Source of the DNA: Meiothermus sp.
GTDB taxonomy: Bacteria; Deinococcota; Deinococci; Deinococcales; Thermaceae
NCBI RefSeq assembly: GCF_026004075.1
Contig: NZ_BPIK01000002.1
Coordinates: forward strand, 124,001-188,000
DNA: 64,000 nt
Reading direction: 5' to 3'
The notes beneath the pieces are model-generated. The model worked only from the letters and a program-made list of their open reading frames with translations. It did no database searches and was not told the origin of the DNA. This document shows, one piece after another, positions 20,472 through 32,347 of this stretch. Each line of letters begins with the position of its first letter. Position 1 is the stretch's first letter. Both the position numbers and the translations under genes were made by a program.

Positions 20472-20774
20472 ATGCTATCAAAAGAACAAACCCTGGCCTT
20501 GCTCAAGCAAAACCGTGCCCACCTCTCCGACGTTTATGGGGTACAACGGATTGGTGTGTTTGGGTCGTTTGCCAAAGGACAACCCACGGACGAAAGCGAT
20601 GTGGATCTGGTCGTGGAGTTTGAGCAACCCATTGGCTTTAGGTTCGTTGAGCTGGCCGAGTATCTCGAGGGATTAATAGGTCGCCAGGTGGATATACTCA
20701 CGCCGGCAGGCATACAGGGGATTAGGGTAGCCCCCATTGCCAAGGACATTGCTGAGAGCATCGAGTATGTCTGA
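20472..20774 (+). CDS. MNT-type nucleotidyltransferase (HEPN-MNT antitoxin-like)
   Basis: This 100-aa minimal nucleotidyltransferase has IGVFGSFAKGQPTDESDVDLVVEF, the GSxAKG...DxD motif of the polymerase-beta superfamily. Stand-alone MNT proteins usually act as antitoxins that AMPylate a neighbouring HEPN ribonuclease toxin. Here the expected HEPN gene is missing: only a 27-codon frame overlaps the stop. AGGAAG precedes ATG 20472. The coding sequence is AT-richer than the neighbouring metabolic genes, suggesting an accessory origin. Confidence 0.82.
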   Translation: MLSKEQTLALLKQNRAHLSDVYGVQRIGVFGSFAKGQPTDESDVDLVVEFEQPIGFRFVELAEYLEGLIGRQVDILTPAGIQGIRVAPIAKDIAESIEYV

Positions 20775-24299: not shown

Positions 24300-24752
24300 T
24301 CAGAAATCCACTACCTCAATGTCAAATCCGTGAGGTGAGGCAGGGTTTTCAGTAATACGCAGCCCTTTTATGGTCGACTGACCACCATAGTAGGTAAACC
24401 GCACCCCTAGTGGCTGTTTATCAGGCAGACACCTCCAAGTTAGGTCGACCTCTGCGAAGTTACGCACGGAACCATCAAAACCAAGAATATAGCTGGTTCG
24501 CCTGGGCTCAGGGTTCGGGTCTGGAATGCGCACAGGCTGGCCTGGTGTCAGGCGTACTGAGTCGGCTCTACCCTCTGTTCTGTACAGGTAGCCAATACTC
24601 GTTATTTTTTGGTTGTTGGTGGTCAGTTCAACCCCCGAACATACCCCTTTTGATGTGTATTCCGCTTCAGTAACAGACACATAGTAACTCAACTGCAACT
24701 GGCAGCTTGTTGCAGCAACGGCCAGGAGGGGAAACAGCCGGTAGAACTTCAT
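24300..24752 (-). CDS. Putative lipoprotein, CLPD family member A
   Basis: This is 150 aa from ATG 24752 (a GTG-GTG-AAG precedes in frame). A short signal peptide ends in LAVAATSC, a lipobox with the lipidated Cys. The mature part has KGVCSG, WRCLPDK and ITENPASPHGFDIEV, motifs shared in the same order with the proteins at 24811-25272 and 27345-27800. The two conserved cysteines probably form a disulfide. I recognise no known family. It follows member B by 58 bp in the same minus-strand operon. Confidence 0.65.
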   Translation of the reverse strand: MKFYRLFPLLAVAATSCQLQLSYYVSVTEAEYTSKGVCSGVELTTNNQKITSIGYLYRTEGRADSVRLTPGQPVRIPDPNPEPRRTSYILGFDGSVRNFAEVDLTWRCLPDKQPLGVRFTYYGGQSTIKGLRITENPASPHGFDIEVVDF

Positions 24753-24810
24753 CTTCACCACCCATCTAAGTACATGCCGTTAGAACAGTCCGAGCCATCC
24801 TACATGCGCA

Positions 24811-25272
24811 CTAGGGCGGCGGGGGCGTATACCTGAACTGCTCAACGATTATCTCCAAGCTTTCGGGTTTGGAGGCATCTTCCTTGACTCTAAGCCGTAT
24901 TCGCGGGAAATTTGCTATCGGAACAACAAAGTCTACCCTCACCACTGACTTATCAGGTAAACACCTGAAAGCAAGGGAGAGTGGCACGTTGGTTTCGACC
25001 TGACCCCCTACAAGGAAGCTGTACTCGGTGGTTTGGGTTGGCGCGTCTATTTCCAGTGGGGGGAGGTTGGGTCCAACAAAACCAATATGCTTCAAATCCG
25101 GTGGGGCGGTCTGCAGTGAAAATCCCCTATCTGTAAGGGTTGCAATGGAAAACTTCTGACAGACCCCAGCAGGTTCGTAACGAATATAAGCAGGAGTAGC
25201 CACGTAGGCCCGTAGGTCACAGCCGGTCACAATGGCCAACAAAACCAATGGCACAAACAAGCGAAGCAACAC
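24811..25272 (-). CDS. Putative lipoprotein, CLPD family member B
   Basis: This 153-aa protein has signal sequence LFVPLVLLAIVTGC with a clear lipobox. Conserved points are AGVCQK, FRCLPDKS and VKEDASKPESLEIIV, as in members A and C. The C-terminus is FRYTPPPP. GTG 25272 has AGGAGG at 8 nt. It starts 5 bp after the truncated peptidase-like gene, repeating the peptidase-then-lipoprotein order seen at 27.3-29.7 kb. Exported and membrane-anchored by prediction; role unknown. Confidence 0.68.
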   Translation of the reverse strand: MLLRLFVPLVLLAIVTGCDLRAYVATPAYIRYEPAGVCQKFSIATLTDRGFSLQTAPPDLKHIGFVGPNLPPLEIDAPTQTTEYSFLVGGQVETNVPLSLAFRCLPDKSVVRVDFVVPIANFPRIRLRVKEDASKPESLEIIVEQFRYTPPPP

Positions 25273-25277
25273 CGCCT

Positions 25278-25757
25278 TTACCTCCTGAACATCCCAAACG
25301 CCCCGCTGTAATAGCTGGCCATGTCGGTAACATTAACAAAAGTGCCGTCTAAGAAACCTTCCTTACCCCTTGAAATCCACAGGAGCACGTTCGCTGAAAA
25401 CCAGCCCTCGTGCACAATATAAGCCTGGGACATAGCAAAGTGGCCTAAAGTGCCCTGCCCGTACATCGCAATCACCGGCTCATTGTCTCGCCCAATCTTG
25501 CCACGCGCTATATCGCGCACGCGCCAGGTGTGTTGACTGAAGTCTATCCAGGCGATGGGAATTGCCACAACAGTCCATCCCGTGGCCGCGTAGACTATAT
25601 TCACCCAGGCTTTGTGGCTCCCCCGCATCTCCCAGTTTTTCCCTTCCGCACTCGCCCTATCCCGAATCCAGTTGTTTGCACCTGGGATCATGTTGGTGTC
25701 TCGGGTAAGACCTTGATCTGAGTTCTGAAACCACAACGACCAACGACCAACGACCAA
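25278..25757 (-). CDS. Truncated paralogue of the 626-aa papain-like lipoprotein
   Basis: The C-terminal half (TVVAIPIAWIDFSQHTWRV, EPVIAMYGQGTLGHFAMSQAY, ANVLLWISRG) aligns with residues about 490-580 of the protein at 27856-29736 (VVTVGKAFDSGFNQFTWDV, EPYIALYNSGNKGGHYAPVFAY, VDVNVWVNGR). The upstream DNA is also duplicated. Most of the body, including the proposed catalytic Cys, is missing, and the start runs directly from the heptamer-repeat signal region into the C-terminal part. Only a TTG (25757) opens the frame, and it lacks a lipobox. It is probably a deletion remnant, though still an open frame of 159 codons. Confidence 0.55.
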   Translation of the reverse strand: MVVGRWSLWFQNSDQGLTRDTNMIPGANNWIRDRASAEGKNWEMRGSHKAWVNIVYAATGWTVVAIPIAWIDFSQHTWRVRDIARGKIGRDNEPVIAMYGQGTLGHFAMSQAYIVHEGWFSANVLLWISRGKEGFLDGTFVNVTDMASYYSGAFGMFRR

Positions 25758-25829
25758 CGGATGAAAAACGCATAGCTGAATTCACCTCCATAGTCCAGGC
25801 TACATTTTGGGCAGCCTGCCTCAGTTTAG
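25734..25829 (-). repeat. Duplicated upstream segment, copy A
   Basis: It is about 90% identical to 29695-29799: heptamer tract, GGAGGTG Shine-Dalgarno, and a hairpin CAGGCT-N11-AGCCTG. It marks the 5' end of the truncated peptidase-like copy. Confidence 0.8.
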
Positions 25830-26065
25830 TTCGTAGCGGTGCATTTTAGCAACCTACTAAGCACTAAATATACTTGGTTTATTTTGTAATGAACCCCTCG
25901 TCTTTTGTTTGTGCAAGTGCAGTTTCAGAAAATGACCTGAGCCCTCCACAGTTGTTCAACGGGCAAGTCTGGCCTGATGAGGCTTGCAGGTTTGAGAGAG
26001 GGTGGTGTGTACGCAGTTGGGTTTCCCAACACCCTCCCGAGCTTCGTCCCGAACCATCGGAGCCC

Positions 26066-27127
26066 CTACCGGGTGGGTTGTCCTCCCCTGAAGACGGATT
26101 CATCCATCACTTCTGGGGGGTCGAAGACCAGCTCGAGCATCTCCGACTGAACCATGGTTTTGCTCCCAACAACCCCTCGGTAGTACAGCAGCAGCCCCGA
26201 TTCCATATCTATCGCCAGCTCGTAGTAGTCGCACACCAGCCACCAGTCGTCTGGCACACCCCACCATCCCACCCAGAAAATTGCGTCTTCCTCTTCATCG
26301 GTGATGCGGGGCACCCCCCGAACCAACACCGCAGGTCGGCCCAGGTGGCTACACTCCCCCAGCACCTCGAGCTTCAGGTCCTTGGCCATTGGGCGCAGGT
26401 AGAAATGTTCGTTGACTATGGTCAGGTTGGGGTGCCGGGCCCGGACATTGACCGGATCGCAATAGAAGGCATCGGCGGGATCTTGGCTGCGGCAGCGATA
26501 AACATCCTCCATGCTCACCACGCTTCTATTCAGTTGATTCTGGGGATCGAGCAGAGGTTTTAGAATCCGTTCCACCTCTTCGTTAATCTCGTCACTCGTC
26601 TCATCTACTGAAATTTCTATACCCACTTGCGGGGGTCTGATTGCTGCCCGTGCATGCTTTATTTCCCGCAACATGCTGGCTGCTAGGAACTTCATTCCCT
26701 CTCGCCGCAGTTCCTCTCTCTGCCGCCTATCTATTTGTGTTTTTACCTGCCCATGTTCATCAAAGTACTTCTCCACATCTTTATAAAAAGCCTCGTCTGA
26801 GTGCCCTTGGAATCCCGATTCGTGGCTTGAATACCTGAGCGATTTGGTTCTGTATCCCACACCCGGCTTGAACCAGAACTGACTCTCGATAACGTTTTTG
26901 CCAGGTGGGCGAAGTTTAACTTCTAAATTTCGCTCTGCCGCTCCACTCTGATACGGCGTAATTTTGTCGTTGTCACGAGGCAACCGAGCTGTTGTAACAG
27001 CCCATAGGCCGGTATCCTCTTCCCAACGAATCTTGTAGTACACTCCCGTGGCGGGGAAATGAAAGAGTGGTGGGCTGAGCATTCGCAGAACAACATCCTG
27101 CGTGGCGTACGTTCTTGTATCATTCAT
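26066..27127 (-). CDS. Unknown 353-aa protein, possible LolA/RseB-like C-terminal domain
   Basis: I do not recognise the whole protein. There is no signal peptide or membrane segment. The middle is charged and helical (about residues 125-185). The C-terminal part has LEVLGECSHLGRPAVLVRGVPR, WWLVCDYYELAIDMESGLLLYY and ELVFDPPEVMDESVF. This order (Tyr-x-hydrophobic-Asp-x-x-x-Gly-hydrophobic, then phi-x-FdPP...F) resembles the end of LolA/RseB-fold domains in actinobacterial and Deinococcota proteins. It lies between lipoprotein C and the truncated peptidase gene, on the same strand, 217 bp after lipoprotein C. Base composition is lower in GC than the flanking core. Confidence 0.5.
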   Translation of the reverse strand: MNDTRTYATQDVVLRMLSPPLFHFPATGVYYKIRWEEDTGLWAVTTARLPRDNDKITPYQSGAAERNLEVKLRPPGKNVIESQFWFKPGVGYRTKSLRYSSHESGFQGHSDEAFYKDVEKYFDEHGQVKTQIDRRQREELRREGMKFLAASMLREIKHARAAIRPPQVGIEISVDETSDEINEEVERILKPLLDPQNQLNRSVVSMEDVYRCRSQDPADAFYCDPVNVRARHPNLTIVNEHFYLRPMAKDLKLEVLGECSHLGRPAVLVRGVPRITDEEEDAIFWVGWWGVPDDWWLVCDYYELAIDMESGLLLYYRGVVGSKTMVQSEMLELVFDPPEVMDESVFRGGQPTR

Positions 27128-27344
27128 TCGGGTTTCTCTCTATGAAGTACGGTGGTTTTCCTTTCAAGGCTCAGTTCTCTGCTTTGAACCGTTCACCGGT
27201 GGTGGATCGCTCACATAAATTCGCAGGGGAGATGCGTGAATTTTGGTCAGGTGAGGGTATATGTACGCTGCTCGCAATTATTCACGTACCTAGATCAAAT
27301 CCCCAGCGCCAGATAGGCATCCCATGCAACCGGCAACCCCAAAA
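27128..27344. other. Intergenic region inside the accessory island
   Basis: No coding frame is credible here. It has the inverted repeat CGTGAAT (27236-27242) with ATTCACG about 40 bp on, and is AT-richer than average. It presumably holds the promoter of the 353-aa protein, but no clear -35/-10 pair was identified. Confidence 0.3.
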
Positions 27345-27800
27345 CTAAGGCAGGTCTCCGGGGTTTACCATACGCGTGATTTTGAGCTTACTGGGTTGCG
27401 AAGCGTCCTCCTCTATTCTTACGCCAAAGTAGCTGCTCTGGTAGCCCACCCCCTCGTACCGCCGATGCTCGACCTGGCCATCCGGCAAGCAGTGGAAGTC
27501 GAACTCCATTGTGATCCCTGACCGTGACCCACCAATCGAAGAGGCGTATCTCTTTCCTGGCGTGGGCAATATGAATGTTTTTTCGTCTTGGGGGTAAACT
27601 ACCGACTCTATTGTGCCGTAATCCAAGGGGTATATAGCAAGCGCAACGATCTGTCGCCTGTAATCCACCACCTTCAAACCCTGGCACAGCCCCGTTCCCA
27701 GATAGACCAACTCCACTGGACTAGGTCCTCTGGATATCAAATCAACGTCGCAACCGACAAGGGCGGCCGTTGCGATAACCATAAGTAGAAACCTTTTCAT
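27345..27800 (-). CDS. Putative lipoprotein, CLPD family member C
   Basis: This is 151 aa from ATG 27800 (MKRFLLMVIATAALVGC, clear lipobox), with GAGG at 6 nt. Upstream in-frame starts to 27887 would give a polar, non-signal extension. Conserved family points are TGLCQG, FHCLPDG and IEEDASQPSKLKI. It follows the 626-aa peptidase-like lipoprotein by 55 bp, so each peptidase copy is followed by a CLPD lipoprotein. Immunity protein, inhibitor or structural partner are all possible; none is shown. Confidence 0.68.
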   Translation of the reverse strand: MKRFLLMVIATAALVGCDVDLISRGPSPVELVYLGTGLCQGLKVVDYRRQIVALAIYPLDYGTIESVVYPQDEKTFILPTPGKRYASSIGGSRSGITMEFDFHCLPDGQVEHRRYEGVGYQSSYFGVRIEEDASQPSKLKITRMVNPGDLP

Positions 27801-27855
27801 CGTTTGCCTCATCTCGCAGTGGTTCCACCATATCCCAGGATATATGGGCGACTTT

Positions 27856-29736
27856 CTACTTCTTGTATATTGCCCAGCCGCCACCATATATGTCCCATCG
27901 GTTGGTTATGTTCCATCGGTTGGTTATGTTCACCCAACCGGTGATTCCTATCCCTTCACTTCCCCAGAAACCGTTTGGATACGCTTGAAAATTGGTATTG
28001 AAAACCAAATCAAGACCCCCTCGGTTGCCATTGGGGTTGTTTACAACATTACCGTTATCGTCGGTGTACTTTCGACCCCTACCATTGACCCAGACGTTCA
28101 CGTCCACATAAAAGGGGTTGGCGTAGTTCCTGTATGCAAACACGGGGGCGTAGTGCCCTCCTTTGTTGCCCGAGTTGTAGAGGGCAATGTAGGGCTCACC
28201 GTTGGTGTAAATGGCATAGCGGGTTTTATGGTGAACATCCCAGGTAAACTGGTTGAAACCCGAATCGAACGCTTTGCCAACAGTTACAACCTGCGTAGGA
28301 AGAAGTAGGTTGGTCCAGTCGAAGAAGCCGTAGCCACGAAGTTCGTATCTGTCGGCAAGGCCGCCATTCACCGCCGCATAACGGTTAGAAAGCTCATCGA
28401 GCCAGGCGTTAGCACCCCTCTGGAAACTCGGGGGATCAATTAGGGTGCCCCCCATAAACTCGCCCGCACCCATCAGTTGGGAAATATATGGTTGGTACAC
28501 GTTTTCGCTGGCACTTATGCCCGCCGCTGGGACAGGGCGGTTGAGGTCGCGGGCCAACTCGACATCCGAGCCATAAAAACGGCTCAGCAGGTCACGCACA
28601 CGGTTGACTCCCTGGTTGGTGCGGAAGTACCACCCCATCAGGCGGGTAAAGGTTTGCGCCCCGCATCCATTCACGTAGTGATTGCTGGCGTAGCCTCCAA
28701 CCAGCGGGTTGTAGTACCGAAGACCCCACTTGGAGCCTGGCCCCATCGGTTGTTGAGAAAAGTAAAATGGGGCGGAGTAAACGTATTGCTGGTTACCCCA
28801 GCTCTCGTTAAGTAGCTGAGCTTGGAGCCGCGGATCGTCTTTTGGATTGTCCCAGTTCGGAATGGTTTCGTTCTGCCCATACCCTGCGATATGAGAAAAA
28901 ACACTGATACTGCAAAACCAGCCCACGCAGGTTTTGTAATCGTTCTGGGCTCTGACCGCCGAACTCTGGGCCGAGGGTCTGACTTGTTGAACCGCTTCCA
29001 GTATCCGGGCAAGGTCTAGGGTCCCTTGGGCAGTCGCATACGATGCTACATCTATGTTGTCTGCCGAGCCGGGTGTAACCTTGCTGTTGTTGGTCACCAG
29101 TGCCCAGGCCTGCTTGGTCTGACGCACCAGTTCGGGATCGGAATCGAAAAAACGTTTGAGCGACTGGTAGGTTTTCCGATCTTCACTAAGGCGCTCGGCT
29201 GAAACCACCTCGAGCTTCCACACGTCCCAGTAGCGACCAAGCCTGTCTTCAAGGTATAGAACAGCACCGTAGGGAGAAACAAGACGGCGATACGAGCCAG
29301 CGAGTTTGCGAACCTTGCCAAGATTCTCTACCAATCCGCCATCGAACTGGAAGTTGTAAATGCCGCGAATGTCCGACCCCCCTGTTCCGTATACAGTGTA
29401 GGAGGAGCCAGGCTTATAGGTGCTCACGGCATCCCAAATGCTGGCCCAGTTGCTGGTTACACCCTGTGCTGCGACGGTCAGGTGGTAGAACGGAGCGCCC
29501 AACAAATCGTACACCTTCTCAGTCACGAGTTGCAGGTTATTGGCTGCCTGCGCATTTACAGCACCTGTCTCCAACAAATCTTTTAGAGCAAGGGCTTGAC
29601 CAACCACAACGGGAATCTCTTCGACTTCACTACCTGGGTTAGAAACTGAGGTTTGTTTTTGCGTCTCGCACGCCGCCAGCAACAGAACTAGCCCAACGAC
29701 CAACGACCAACAACCAACGACCAAAAGATAAAACAC
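27856..29736 (-). CDS. Large lipoprotein, possible papain-like (C10/C39-type) cysteine peptidase
   Basis: This 626-aa protein has a signal peptide with lipobox VGLVLLLAACE. At about residues 350-365 the sequence NHYVNGCGAQTFTRLMGWYF resembles the nucleophile helix of papain-fold peptidases (GCxAxxxxQxMxY). At about 528, NKGGHYAPVFAYRNY could supply the His. Between them lies a region rich in Tyr and Asn. The C-terminus ends in a tandem hexapeptide NITNRW. GTG 29736 gives the signal peptide frame, but the better-spaced ATG at 29740 is out of frame because of a heptamer tract. It is the first gene of the island's operon. Peptidase assignment is from motif shape only. Confidence 0.5.
   Translation of the reverse strand: MFYLLVVGCWSLVVGLVLLLAACETQKQTSVSNPGSEVEEIPVVVGQALALKDLLETGAVNAQAANNLQLVTEKVYDLLGAPFYHLTVAAQGVTSNWASIWDAVSTYKPGSSYTVYGTGGSDIRGIYNFQFDGGLVENLGKVRKLAGSYRRLVSPYGAVLYLEDRLGRYWDVWKLEVVSAERLSEDRKTYQSLKRFFDSDPELVRQTKQAWALVTNNSKVTPGSADNIDVASYATAQGTLDLARILEAVQQVRPSAQSSAVRAQNDYKTCVGWFCSISVFSHIAGYGQNETIPNWDNPKDDPRLQAQLLNESWGNQQYVYSAPFYFSQQPMGPGSKWGLRYYNPLVGGYASNHYVNGCGAQTFTRLMGWYFRTNQGVNRVRDLLSRFYGSDVELARDLNRPVPAAGISASENVYQPYISQLMGAGEFMGGTLIDPPSFQRGANAWLDELSNRYAAVNGGLADRYELRGYGFFDWTNLLLPTQVVTVGKAFDSGFNQFTWDVHHKTRYAIYTNGEPYIALYNSGNKGGHYAPVFAYRNYANPFYVDVNVWVNGRGRKYTDDNGNVVNNPNGNRGGLDLVFNTNFQAYPNGFWGSEGIGITGWVNITNRWNITNRWDIYGGGWAIYKK
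27899..27946 (-). repeat. Tandem 18-bp repeat encoding NITNRW
   Basis: The unit CCATCGGTTGGTTATGTT occurs twice in a row with a partial third copy (plus-strand reading), encoding the C-terminal repeat of the large lipoprotein. Confidence 0.8.
29693..29725 (-). repeat. Heptanucleotide tandem tract TTGGTCG x4 at a lipoprotein start
   Basis: On the minus strand TTGGTCG-TTGGTTG-TTGGTCG-TTGGTCG lies in the first codons of the 626-aa lipoprotein. Copy A of this region has three units. Seven is not a multiple of three, so unit gain or loss shifts the frame. Confidence 0.8.
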
Positions 29737-29799
29737 GCATAGCTGAATGCACCTCCATAGTCCAGGCTACATTTTGGGCAGCCTGGCTCAGTTTAGGTT
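29695..29799 (-). repeat. Duplicated upstream segment, copy B
   Basis: This is the partner of 25734-25829. It carries GGAGGTG (29750-29756), 9 nt before ATG 29740 and 13 nt before GTG 29736, and the hairpin CAGGCT-N11-AGCCTG. Confidence 0.8.
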
Positions 29800-29933
29800 G
29801 GATGCGCAGGTATGGTCAATCGGATAATCACTATATAAACTTGGTGCAATTTAGTTTTTTCCTTTTCAATCCAAACATGAATGGCAGACCCGGTTTTACA
29901 TAGCTGCGCTGTTCTCTGGTTTCTATTTCTAGA

Positions 29934-31392: not shown

Positions 31393-31423
31393 CCCCCTCT
31401 AGGCTCCTAGCCTCATGAGGGGG
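31393..31423 (+). promoter_or_regulatory. Hairpin that pairs the Shine-Dalgarno of the Abi gene
   Basis: CCCCCTC (31393-31399) pairs with GAGGGGG (31417-31423), and AGGCT (31401-31405) with AGCCT (31409-31413). The 3' arm is the ribosome-binding site, 9 nt before ATG 31433. Formation of the stem would hide it. Confidence 0.65.
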
Positions 31424-31432
31424 ACGTTTATT

Positions 31433-32347
31433 ATGCAAAATAAAATCCCGTATTCCAAACCTTCACTTACCATTGAGGAGCAAATCAAACAGCTCAAGCG
31501 CCGCGGCATGGTATTCAAAGACGAAGGCAGAGCAGTAGATGTTCTGAAGCGCATTCAGTACACTCGACTTCGCCCCTACTGGCATCCATTCGAGTTGGAT
31601 CGAAACACCCATAGCTTTCAGGATGGCACAACTTTCGAGCAGGTTCTGCTTCTCTATGAATTTGATCGCAAGTTGCGTCTGCTGATTCTGGAGGCCATCG
31701 AGCGTTTTGAGATAGTACTAAGGACACAATGGGCCTACCATCTGGCTGTCATGCACGAACCATTCGGATACCATCAGAGGAACTTTCTGTATAAAAACCT
31801 CGATTATCACCAGAAAAACATTGAACGCCTCCGAGAGGAATGGGAACGTCTACGGGAGGAAGATCCGATATTCCAAAACTTCCAAGAGAAGTACGAAGAG
31901 TCGCTGCCCCCAGTCTGGCTAGCCTGTGAGGTGATGGCGTTTGGTACCTTGAGTCGGTGGTTCTCCAACCTTGGTGACGACCGGGTATCCCAGGCCATTG
32001 CCGCGCTGTTTGACCTACCCCACAGCTACCTCAAAGGAGCTACCCGGCATCTGGTGGCGGTTCGCAACTACGCCGCACACCACGCTCGGGTGTGGGATCG
32101 AGTTTTTAGCGTAAACACCCTACCTGTGTTGCGCAAAAGACCGCCTGAGCTGCGAAGAAGCCTCGAGCCAAACCAGCACGCACAGAAGATTTACCGGACG
32201 CTCACTTTGCTTATGTACCTAATGCCCAGGCTGGTACCCGAGAGCGACTGGGGAACCCGGATAAAAGAGTTGCTTTCCGAACAAGCCCCTCTGCTCGGAC
32301 GGATGGGGTTCCCAGAAGACTATCAAAGCCGCCCGGTTTGGAAATGA
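31433..32347 (+). CDS. Abi-family (AbiD/F, HEPN) abortive infection protein
   Basis: This 304-aa protein has the Abi_2 pattern: SLTIEEQIKQLKRRGM, LKRIQYTRLRPYWHPFE, FEQVLLLYEFDRKLRLLILEAIERFEIVLRTQWAYHLA, and near residue 215 HLVAVRNYAAHHARVWDR, the HEPN RxxxxH ribonuclease motif. Family members cut RNA on phage infection and arrest growth; activity here is inferred. ATG 31433 is preferred because the GAGGGGG Shine-Dalgarno lies between it and the upstream ATG 31415. The gene is AT-richer than its neighbours and single, as is common for AbiD/F. Confidence 0.83.
   Translation: MQNKIPYSKPSLTIEEQIKQLKRRGMVFKDEGRAVDVLKRIQYTRLRPYWHPFELDRNTHSFQDGTTFEQVLLLYEFDRKLRLLILEAIERFEIVLRTQWAYHLAVMHEPFGYHQRNFLYKNLDYHQKNIERLREEWERLREEDPIFQNFQEKYEESLPPVWLACEVMAFGTLSRWFSNLGDDRVSQAIAALFDLPHSYLKGATRHLVAVRNYAAHHARVWDRVFSVNTLPVLRKRPPELRRSLEPNQHAQKIYRTLTLLMYLMPRLVPESDWGTRIKELLSEQAPLLGRMGFPEDYQSRPVWK

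What the first reader, a model, noticed from the sequence alone, without database searches (positions are those of the whole stretch)
24300..29799. Accessory island: papain-like lipoproteins each paired with a member of an unrecognised CLPD lipoprotein family
Three exported lipoproteins of about 150 aa (24300-24752, 24811-25272, 27345-27800) share GxC, (F/W/H)xCLPD and E-(D/N)-x-AS-x-P-x-x-L/F-x-I in the same order, though most other positions differ. Each of two copies of a large lipoprotein with a GCGAQTFTRLMGWYF-type nucleophile motif is followed at once by one of them. The island has only three CTCGAG sites in 5.5 kb against about 24 per 10 kb outside. A peptidase with a rapidly diverging partner on the cell surface could be a toxin/immunity or inhibitor pair, or a surface-processing system. 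I know of no description of it.
Basis: partly seen in the sequence, partly recalled or inferred. Interest (0 to 1): 0.72.

Follow-up and report, generated by a model that had tools for sequence, protein, structure and literature searches.

The report
Repeat-switched lipoprotein peptidase with partner
Heat-loving bacteria of the Meiothermus/Thermus group carry a surface-anchored, papain-like enzyme whose gene is probably flipped on and off by a slippery DNA repeat, and it is always followed by a gene for a small, fast-changing lipoprotein that probably keeps the enzyme in check.

Summary
The three ~150-aa lipoproteins are homologous, and among 111 Deinococcota genomes every peptidase locus examined whose downstream DNA is held has such a lipoprotein gene right behind it. 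The 626-aa family has invariant Q, GCG and H, as expected of a papain-like enzyme, but no Pfam or PDB match. The second 'copy' in the window is a dead C-terminal fragment without the nucleophile. The surprise is the gene start: a conserved promoter, Shine-Dalgarno and ATG are followed, always 16 nt from the ATG, by (TTGGTCG)n, n = 1 to at least 7, so repeat number sets the reading frame. Other genera have (GGAA)n or (TC)n there. In 19 of 20 scorable copies the ATG is out of frame, yet the peptidase is under strong purifying selection. The same leader drives an unrelated lipoprotein (LpB) paired with a homologue of the window's 353-aa gene, and one chromosomal site carries different cargo in four species. 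Best reading: a phase-variable surface peptidase with a cognate lipoprotein inhibitor or immunity protein. Pairing is shown, phase variation strongly inferred, the inhibitor role inferred and untested.

The parts
29790..29819 (-). promoter-like site TTGACC-18-TAAACT of the leader
   Evidence: conserved in most leaders; a consensus match, no experiment
29738..29756 (-). Shine-Dalgarno GGAGGTG and start codon ATG (29740-29738); out of frame with the peptidase
29697..29724 (-). heptanucleotide array, 4 units (TTGGTCG, TTGGTTG, TTGGTCG, TTGGTCG) that sets the frame
27856..29736 (-). 626-aa papain-like lipoprotein peptidase (GTG-initiated frame; Cys358 codon 28665-28663, His528 codon 28155-28153)
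27345..27800 (-). CLPD lipoprotein P0003, cognate partner of the 626-aa protein
26066..27127 (-). P0005, 353 aa, no signal peptide; homologue of the partner of lipoprotein LpB in sister genomes; orphan here
25737..25773 (-). second leader: ATG at 25773 and 3 heptamers
25278..25757 (-). peptidase remnant (C-terminal part with the His, no nucleophile)
24811..25272 (-). CLPD lipoprotein P0002 with its own strong Shine-Dalgarno (GGAGG)
24300..24761 (-). CLPD lipoprotein P0001 (ATG at 24752)

Best explanation
The island is a cluster of phase-variable surface lipoprotein effectors and their partners. The large protein is a lipid-anchored papain-like cysteine peptidase. Its production is switched by slippage of a short tandem repeat between the start codon and the lipobox. 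The small CLPD lipoprotein encoded just downstream sits in the same compartment and most likely binds its cognate peptidase and blocks it (inhibitor/immunity). Cells that lose or switch off the peptidase keep the partner and stay protected. A shared leader (promoter, Shine-Dalgarno, ATG, repeat, signal peptide) is where one effector cassette is exchanged for another. Shown: pairing, co-divergence, repeat number setting the frame, purifying selection, different cargo at one site, orphan partners. Inferred: catalysis, switching in living cells, inhibition, target.
For: A small lipoprotein gene follows every peptidase locus examined with downstream sequence (24 of 25; the other ends at a contig edge). 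Partner and peptidase identities correlate (Mantel r 0.86 without one chimeric locus, 0.58 with it). Partners occur without peptidase in four genomes and beside peptidase remnants in five; no intact peptidase without partner was seen. Invariant Q, GCG, H. Leader with (TTGGTCG)n 16 nt after the ATG, n 1 to at least 7; (GGAA)n and (TC)n in other genera; 1 of 20 scorable copies in frame, P about 0.003 if independent. Peptidase dN/dS 0.07-0.26. Different cargo at one chromosomal site in four species. Analogue: Bfp proteases with contiguous lipoprotein inhibitors (PMC2873492).
Against: No fold or family match proves a peptidase: the AF2 model is poor and the C39_2 profile match is weak. No complex was modelled and no inhibitor family was recognised. 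G040 has a type-A peptidase followed by a type-B partner, which weakens strict specificity. Peptidase genes are about four times longer than partner genes, so more damage is expected by chance. Repeat switching was not observed within a strain.
Confidence: 0.5

Rival explanations
1. The CLPD lipoprotein is a helper, not an inhibitor: a periplasmic chaperone, activator or anchoring subunit needed to fold or display a phase-variable surface peptidase.
For: Strict adjacency, shared compartment and co-divergence fit a subunit or chaperone equally well.
Against: Partners persist as orphans and in tandem copies beside dead peptidases, which a dedicated helper would not be expected to do; they diverge faster than the peptidase.
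Confidence: 0.2
2. There is no switch: the SD-linked ATG is not the real start, or the genes are decaying and the repeats are a by-product.
For: Nearly all sequenced copies are out of frame with the SD-linked ATG; some peptidases are broken; in the window copy a GTG 4 nt downstream of the ATG is in frame with the peptidase.
Against: Out-of-frame copies stay under purifying selection. The lipobox frame is +1 in some copies and +2 in others, so no single alternative start serves all. Three different repeat units occupy the same place in different genera.
Confidence: 0.15
3. The pair is a contact-dependent or lipoprotein-exchange toxin system used against kin, like SitA/SitI of myxobacteria.
For: Lipoprotein effector, cognate downstream gene, orphan partners, cargo swapping behind a shared leader, two unrelated effectors (PMC5562445).
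Against: No shared delivery domain between the effectors beyond the leader and signal peptide; no delivery machinery identified; toxicity untested.
Confidence: 0.15

Closest known systems
Bacteroides fragilis C10 proteases Bfp with inhibitors Bfi (PMC2873492); also staphopain/staphostatin and SpeB/Spi
   Same: Papain-like protease gene directly followed by a small gene for an exported or lipoprotein inhibitor; proteases are lipoproteins; low identity between inhibitors.
   Different: No sequence relation found; here the protease gene has a repeat leader, partners occur as orphans, and the hosts are free-living thermophiles.
Peptidase_C39_2 (PF13529) and other papain-like peptidases
   Same: CGP/CGA nucleophile followed by GHY; a weak profile alignment pairs Cys with Cys and His with His.
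   Different: No Pfam hit at E<=1 in 17 members; Cys-His spacing about 170 residues against roughly 90; large N-terminal region.
SitA/SitI lipoprotein toxins of myxobacteria (PMC5562445)
   Same: Lipoprotein effectors of more than one type, each with a cognate downstream gene.
   Different: No shared N-terminal delivery domain found; partner of the peptidase is itself a lipoprotein; repeat switch; toxicity untested.
Phase-variable contingency loci (simple sequence repeats) of Haemophilus, Neisseria, Helicobacter
   Same: Short tandem repeat just after the start codon of a surface-protein gene, unit length not a multiple of three.
   Different: Different phylum; homologous genes use 7-, 4- and 2-base repeats; nearly all copies out of frame.

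Membership tests
Papain-like cysteine peptidases, C39_2 branch | Invariant catalytic Cys and His in the order C then H, with an oxyanion-hole Gln | tested here: met
   Q317, C358, H528 invariant in 17 relatives; whether Q317 is the oxyanion Gln is not established (it lies 41 residues before the Cys)
Papain-like cysteine peptidases, C39_2 branch | Significant profile match or papain fold | tested here: inconclusive
   No Pfam hit; hhalign P=0.025; AF2 model too poor
Staphostatin/Bfi-type protease inhibitors | Small exported beta-rich protein encoded next to a cysteine protease | tested here: met
   Adjacency and all-beta AF2 model
Staphostatin/Bfi-type protease inhibitors | Staphostatin (lipocalin-like) or chagasin fold | tested here: inconclusive
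   Foldseek and VIA give only generic beta sandwiches; neither family was listed
Staphostatin/Bfi-type protease inhibitors | Inhibits its cognate protease | not testable with these tools
   needs purified proteins
Translational phase-variable (contingency) locus | Tandem repeat, unit not a multiple of three, inside the reading frame near the start, with variable copy number between alleles | tested here: met
   n 1 to at least 7 in leaders with constant 16-nt spacing; LpB-P0005 genes 96% identical between G031 and G039 with n=2 and n=7
Translational phase-variable (contingency) locus | Copy number changes within a clone and switches expression | not testable with these tools
   one genome per species, no reads
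SitA/SitI-like polymorphic lipoprotein toxins | Cognate gene immediately downstream; partner genes kept without the effector | tested here: met
SitA/SitI-like polymorphic lipoprotein toxins | Shared N-terminal delivery region with different C-terminal toxin domains | tested here: not met
   Peptidase and LpB share only the leader/signal peptide

The most novel reading that the evidence does not exclude
Deinococcota carry a previously undescribed class of phase-variable lipoprotein effector/immunity cassettes. Unrelated effectors (a papain-like peptidase and LpB) plug into one repeat-bearing leader, each followed by its own partner gene, and are exchanged between species at fixed chromosomal sites. 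Being in frame is costly enough that nearly all sequenced copies are out of frame.
Probability: 0.3. Interest if true: 0.8.

Novelty: new variant of a known kind. Interest (0 to 1): 0.62.

Why it matters
Neither protein family matched Pfam or the PDB, and window members matched none of the other libraries searched. If right, it is a new peptidase/inhibitor (or effector/immunity) pair and a clear case of repeat-driven phase variation in free-living thermophiles, a trait studied mostly in host-associated bacteria (my knowledge; no paper on it in this phylum turned up). Homologous genes in different genera use a 7-, 4- and 2-base repeat at the same place, which points to repeated selection for a switch. 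Both the switch and the pairing can be tested directly in non-pathogenic laboratory thermophiles.

Tried and rejected
Second peptidase copy as an active gene: rejected, it lacks the nucleophile part. A shared N-terminal domain between peptidase and LpB (suggested by HMM hits): rejected, the overlap is the leader/signal peptide only. CTCGAG depletion as a sign of foreign DNA: weak, the island is also poorer in GC. PDB search with the CLPD profile: antibody light chains at E 0.01 or worse, taken as chance. Foldseek and VIA for CLPD: only generic beta-sandwich matches; staphostatin and chagasin did not appear in the rows listed. Foldseek on the peptidase model: meaningless at pLDDT 51. Phage or plasmid origin: no match in the phage, plasmid or viral collections. 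The heptamer occurs in ten viral contigs, not read further. The search for related loci with a deep alignment failed for lack of conserved stretches; the narrower one found four loci, all Meiothermus/Thermus/Thermaceae. Programmed frameshifting: rejected as a general answer because copies need opposite shifts. The L080 (G075) lipoprotein hit of the iterated HMM was dropped: it is a 3-oxoacyl-ACP-synthase-like ORF (judged by eye).
Full report
WHAT IS THERE. The window is G000:C2:124001-188000, a Meiothermus-like genome (the genus rests on named relatives found). On the minus strand, reading 5' to 3': a leader (29819-29697), a 626-aa lipoprotein (27856-29736), a CLPD lipoprotein P0003 (27345-27800), a 353-aa gene without signal peptide, P0005 (26066-27127), a second leader (25773-25737) fused to a peptidase remnant (25278-25757), then two CLPD lipoproteins, P0002 (24811-25272) and P0001 (24300-24752). 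A FAD oxidoreductase lies on one side and an aminotransferase on the other (named from their sequence, not searched).

CLPD FAMILY. The three lipoproteins are homologous (E 1e-8 to 4e-12 pairwise). In 24 relatives the lipobox Cys, two further Cys and one Glu are invariant, so a disulphide is likely (inference). No Pfam or NCBIfam family. AF2 with nine sequences gives a confident all-beta model (pLDDT 87, pTM 0.81, ten strands). Foldseek finds nothing at E<=0.001; VIA Z is at most 7.1 against unrelated beta sandwiches, which by the tool's own note may mean only a common arrangement.

PEPTIDASE FAMILY. In 17 relatives Q317, G357, C358, G359, G441, P515 and H528 are invariant, as expected of a papain-like enzyme. 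No Pfam, NCBIfam or PDB match. A profile comparison with C39_2 proteins of the same bacterial family aligns CGP with CGP and GHY with GHY but only at P=0.025. The AF2 model is poor. The papain assignment rests on the motif pattern and is probable, not proven.

PAIRING. Searches of 111 Deinococcota genomes found peptidase sequence in 24 and HMM-detectable CLPD in 20 (a few of these matches are leader-only or very short). Of the 25 peptidase loci examined, one (G041b) ends at a contig edge; every other has a small lipoprotein gene starting about -40 to +100 bp from the peptidase end on the same strand (for G038 the partner was found), including distant orders where the CLPD profile no longer reaches. 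For those distant ones homology to CLPD is suggested only by position, size and a Cys followed by G(I/L), not tested. Two more adjacent pairs, G041:C123 and the G046 remnant, are. Peptidase and partner identities are correlated (Mantel r=0.86, p=0.0002 without the chimeric G040 locus; 0.58 with it); partners are less conserved in 78 of 91 comparisons. Selection is purifying on both, weaker on CLPD (dN/dS 0.19-0.47 against 0.07-0.26, leaving out the near-identical G042-G040 CLPD pair). Shared descent of the genomes also raises such correlations; no species-tree correction was made.

ASYMMETRIC LOSS. Peptidases are reduced to fragments next to intact CLPD genes in G000 (window), G040, G029, G038 and G046, and several others are split by frameshift or, in G108, by an IS200-like ORF. 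CLPD occurs without detectable peptidase in G026, G036, G045 and G065. No intact peptidase without a partner was seen. Because the peptidase gene is about four times longer, damage counts alone do not prove selection to keep the partner; the orphan loci are the stronger evidence.

THE SWITCH. The leader is conserved at the DNA level (77-93%) in front of peptidases and of LpB. It has a TTGAC/-10-like promoter in most copies, a GGAGGTG (once GAAGGTG) Shine-Dalgarno and an ATG; exactly 16 nt from the A of the ATG begins (TTGGTCG)n, which reads LVVGRWS in every frame, then the hydrophobic core and lipobox. n ranges from 1 to at least 7, and three G041 contigs end inside arrays. In the 18 genus genomes the array pattern was found at these leaders and at one unrelated place, G034:C201:12666. 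In the leaders whose lipobox the script located, the lipobox frame is +1 or +2 from the ATG, never 0; one LpB copy with degenerate units is in frame. In genus g14 the repeat is (GGAA)n and in g13 (TC)n, again with the ATG out of frame (five copies, frames read by eye). Counting copies that could be scored, 1 of 20 is in frame; with one third expected this has P of about 0.003, treating copies as independent, which they are only in part. Because the body is under strong purifying selection these are not simply pseudogenes, and since copies need different shifts no single alternative start or fixed frameshift explains them. Repeat-driven phase variation with selection against the in-frame state in sequenced isolates is the best account. 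Switching itself was not observed. The CLPD genes have their own upstream sites; P0002's GGAGG is strong, P0003's and P0001's are weaker, so the partner could be made when the peptidase is off.

CASSETTE EXCHANGE. At the site between the oxidoreductase and the aminotransferase the window holds peptidase-CLPD-P0005-remnant-CLPD-CLPD; G031 one peptidase-CLPD pair; G039 LpB plus a P0005 homologue; G043 a leader and LpB remnant plus a P0005 homologue. Sequence matches flank to flank at about 95-97% and breaks at the leader repeats. LpB is an unrelated ~230-aa lipoprotein; in G031, G039 and twice in G040 it is followed by a P0005 homologue. P0005 in the window and in G043 thus look like orphan partners.

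MECHANISM AND NOVELTY. The nearest working analogue is the Bacteroides Bfp/Bfi pair: lipoprotein C10 proteases with contiguous, co-transcribed, staphostatin-like inhibitors, most of them lipoproteins (PMC2873492). By analogy the CLPD protein would cap the active site on the producing cell. The retained orphan partners and cargo exchange fit immunity genes of effector systems such as SitA/SitI (PMC5562445), but no shared delivery domain was found. Membership in either is not claimed. The kind (protease/inhibitor or effector/immunity pair; phase-variable surface protein) is known; the protein families, the host group and the combination appear undescribed in what could be searched, so it is filed as a new variant of a known kind.

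Noticed in passing
window 26066-27127; L059:4821-6346, L059:13504-15008, L070:5469-7248, L073:10929-12640: A second pair: LpB (~230-aa lipoprotein behind the same repeat leader) followed by a P0005-type gene without signal peptide. Neither matched a family in the libraries tried; P0005 in the window has lost its LpB.
   Followed up: partly
window 29755-29785 and the same place in the other leaders: The leader's 5' untranslated part holds an inverted repeat (CAGGCT...AGCCTG in the window; TGGCTAC...GTAGCC in others) just before the Shine-Dalgarno; it may be a regulatory hairpin.
   Followed up: no
L056, L059, L062, L073, L075, L076, L143: A second recurrent site of these cassettes lies beside a polyamine-type ABC transporter, a serine-hydrolase-like gene and aminotransferases (genes named from sequence only).
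   Followed up: no
L059:6492-8842: Chimeric locus: a type-A peptidase followed by a type-B partner that carries a type-A partner's signal peptide, as if one partner gene had been deleted into the next; the one clear exception to co-divergence.
   Followed up: partly
window 27856-27930: Short tandem duplication near the 3' end of the 626-aa gene (NITNRWNITNRW).
   Followed up: no
window 31415-32347 and 20472-20774: ORFs that look by eye like an Abi-type abortive infection protein and a MNT-type nucleotidyltransferase, both possible defence or toxin-antitoxin genes near the island; no search was run.
   Followed up: no
L065:7709-8146: In G108 an IS200/IS605-like transposase ORF (named by eye) interrupts the peptidase gene, with both halves and a downstream lipoprotein still present.
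   Followed up: no
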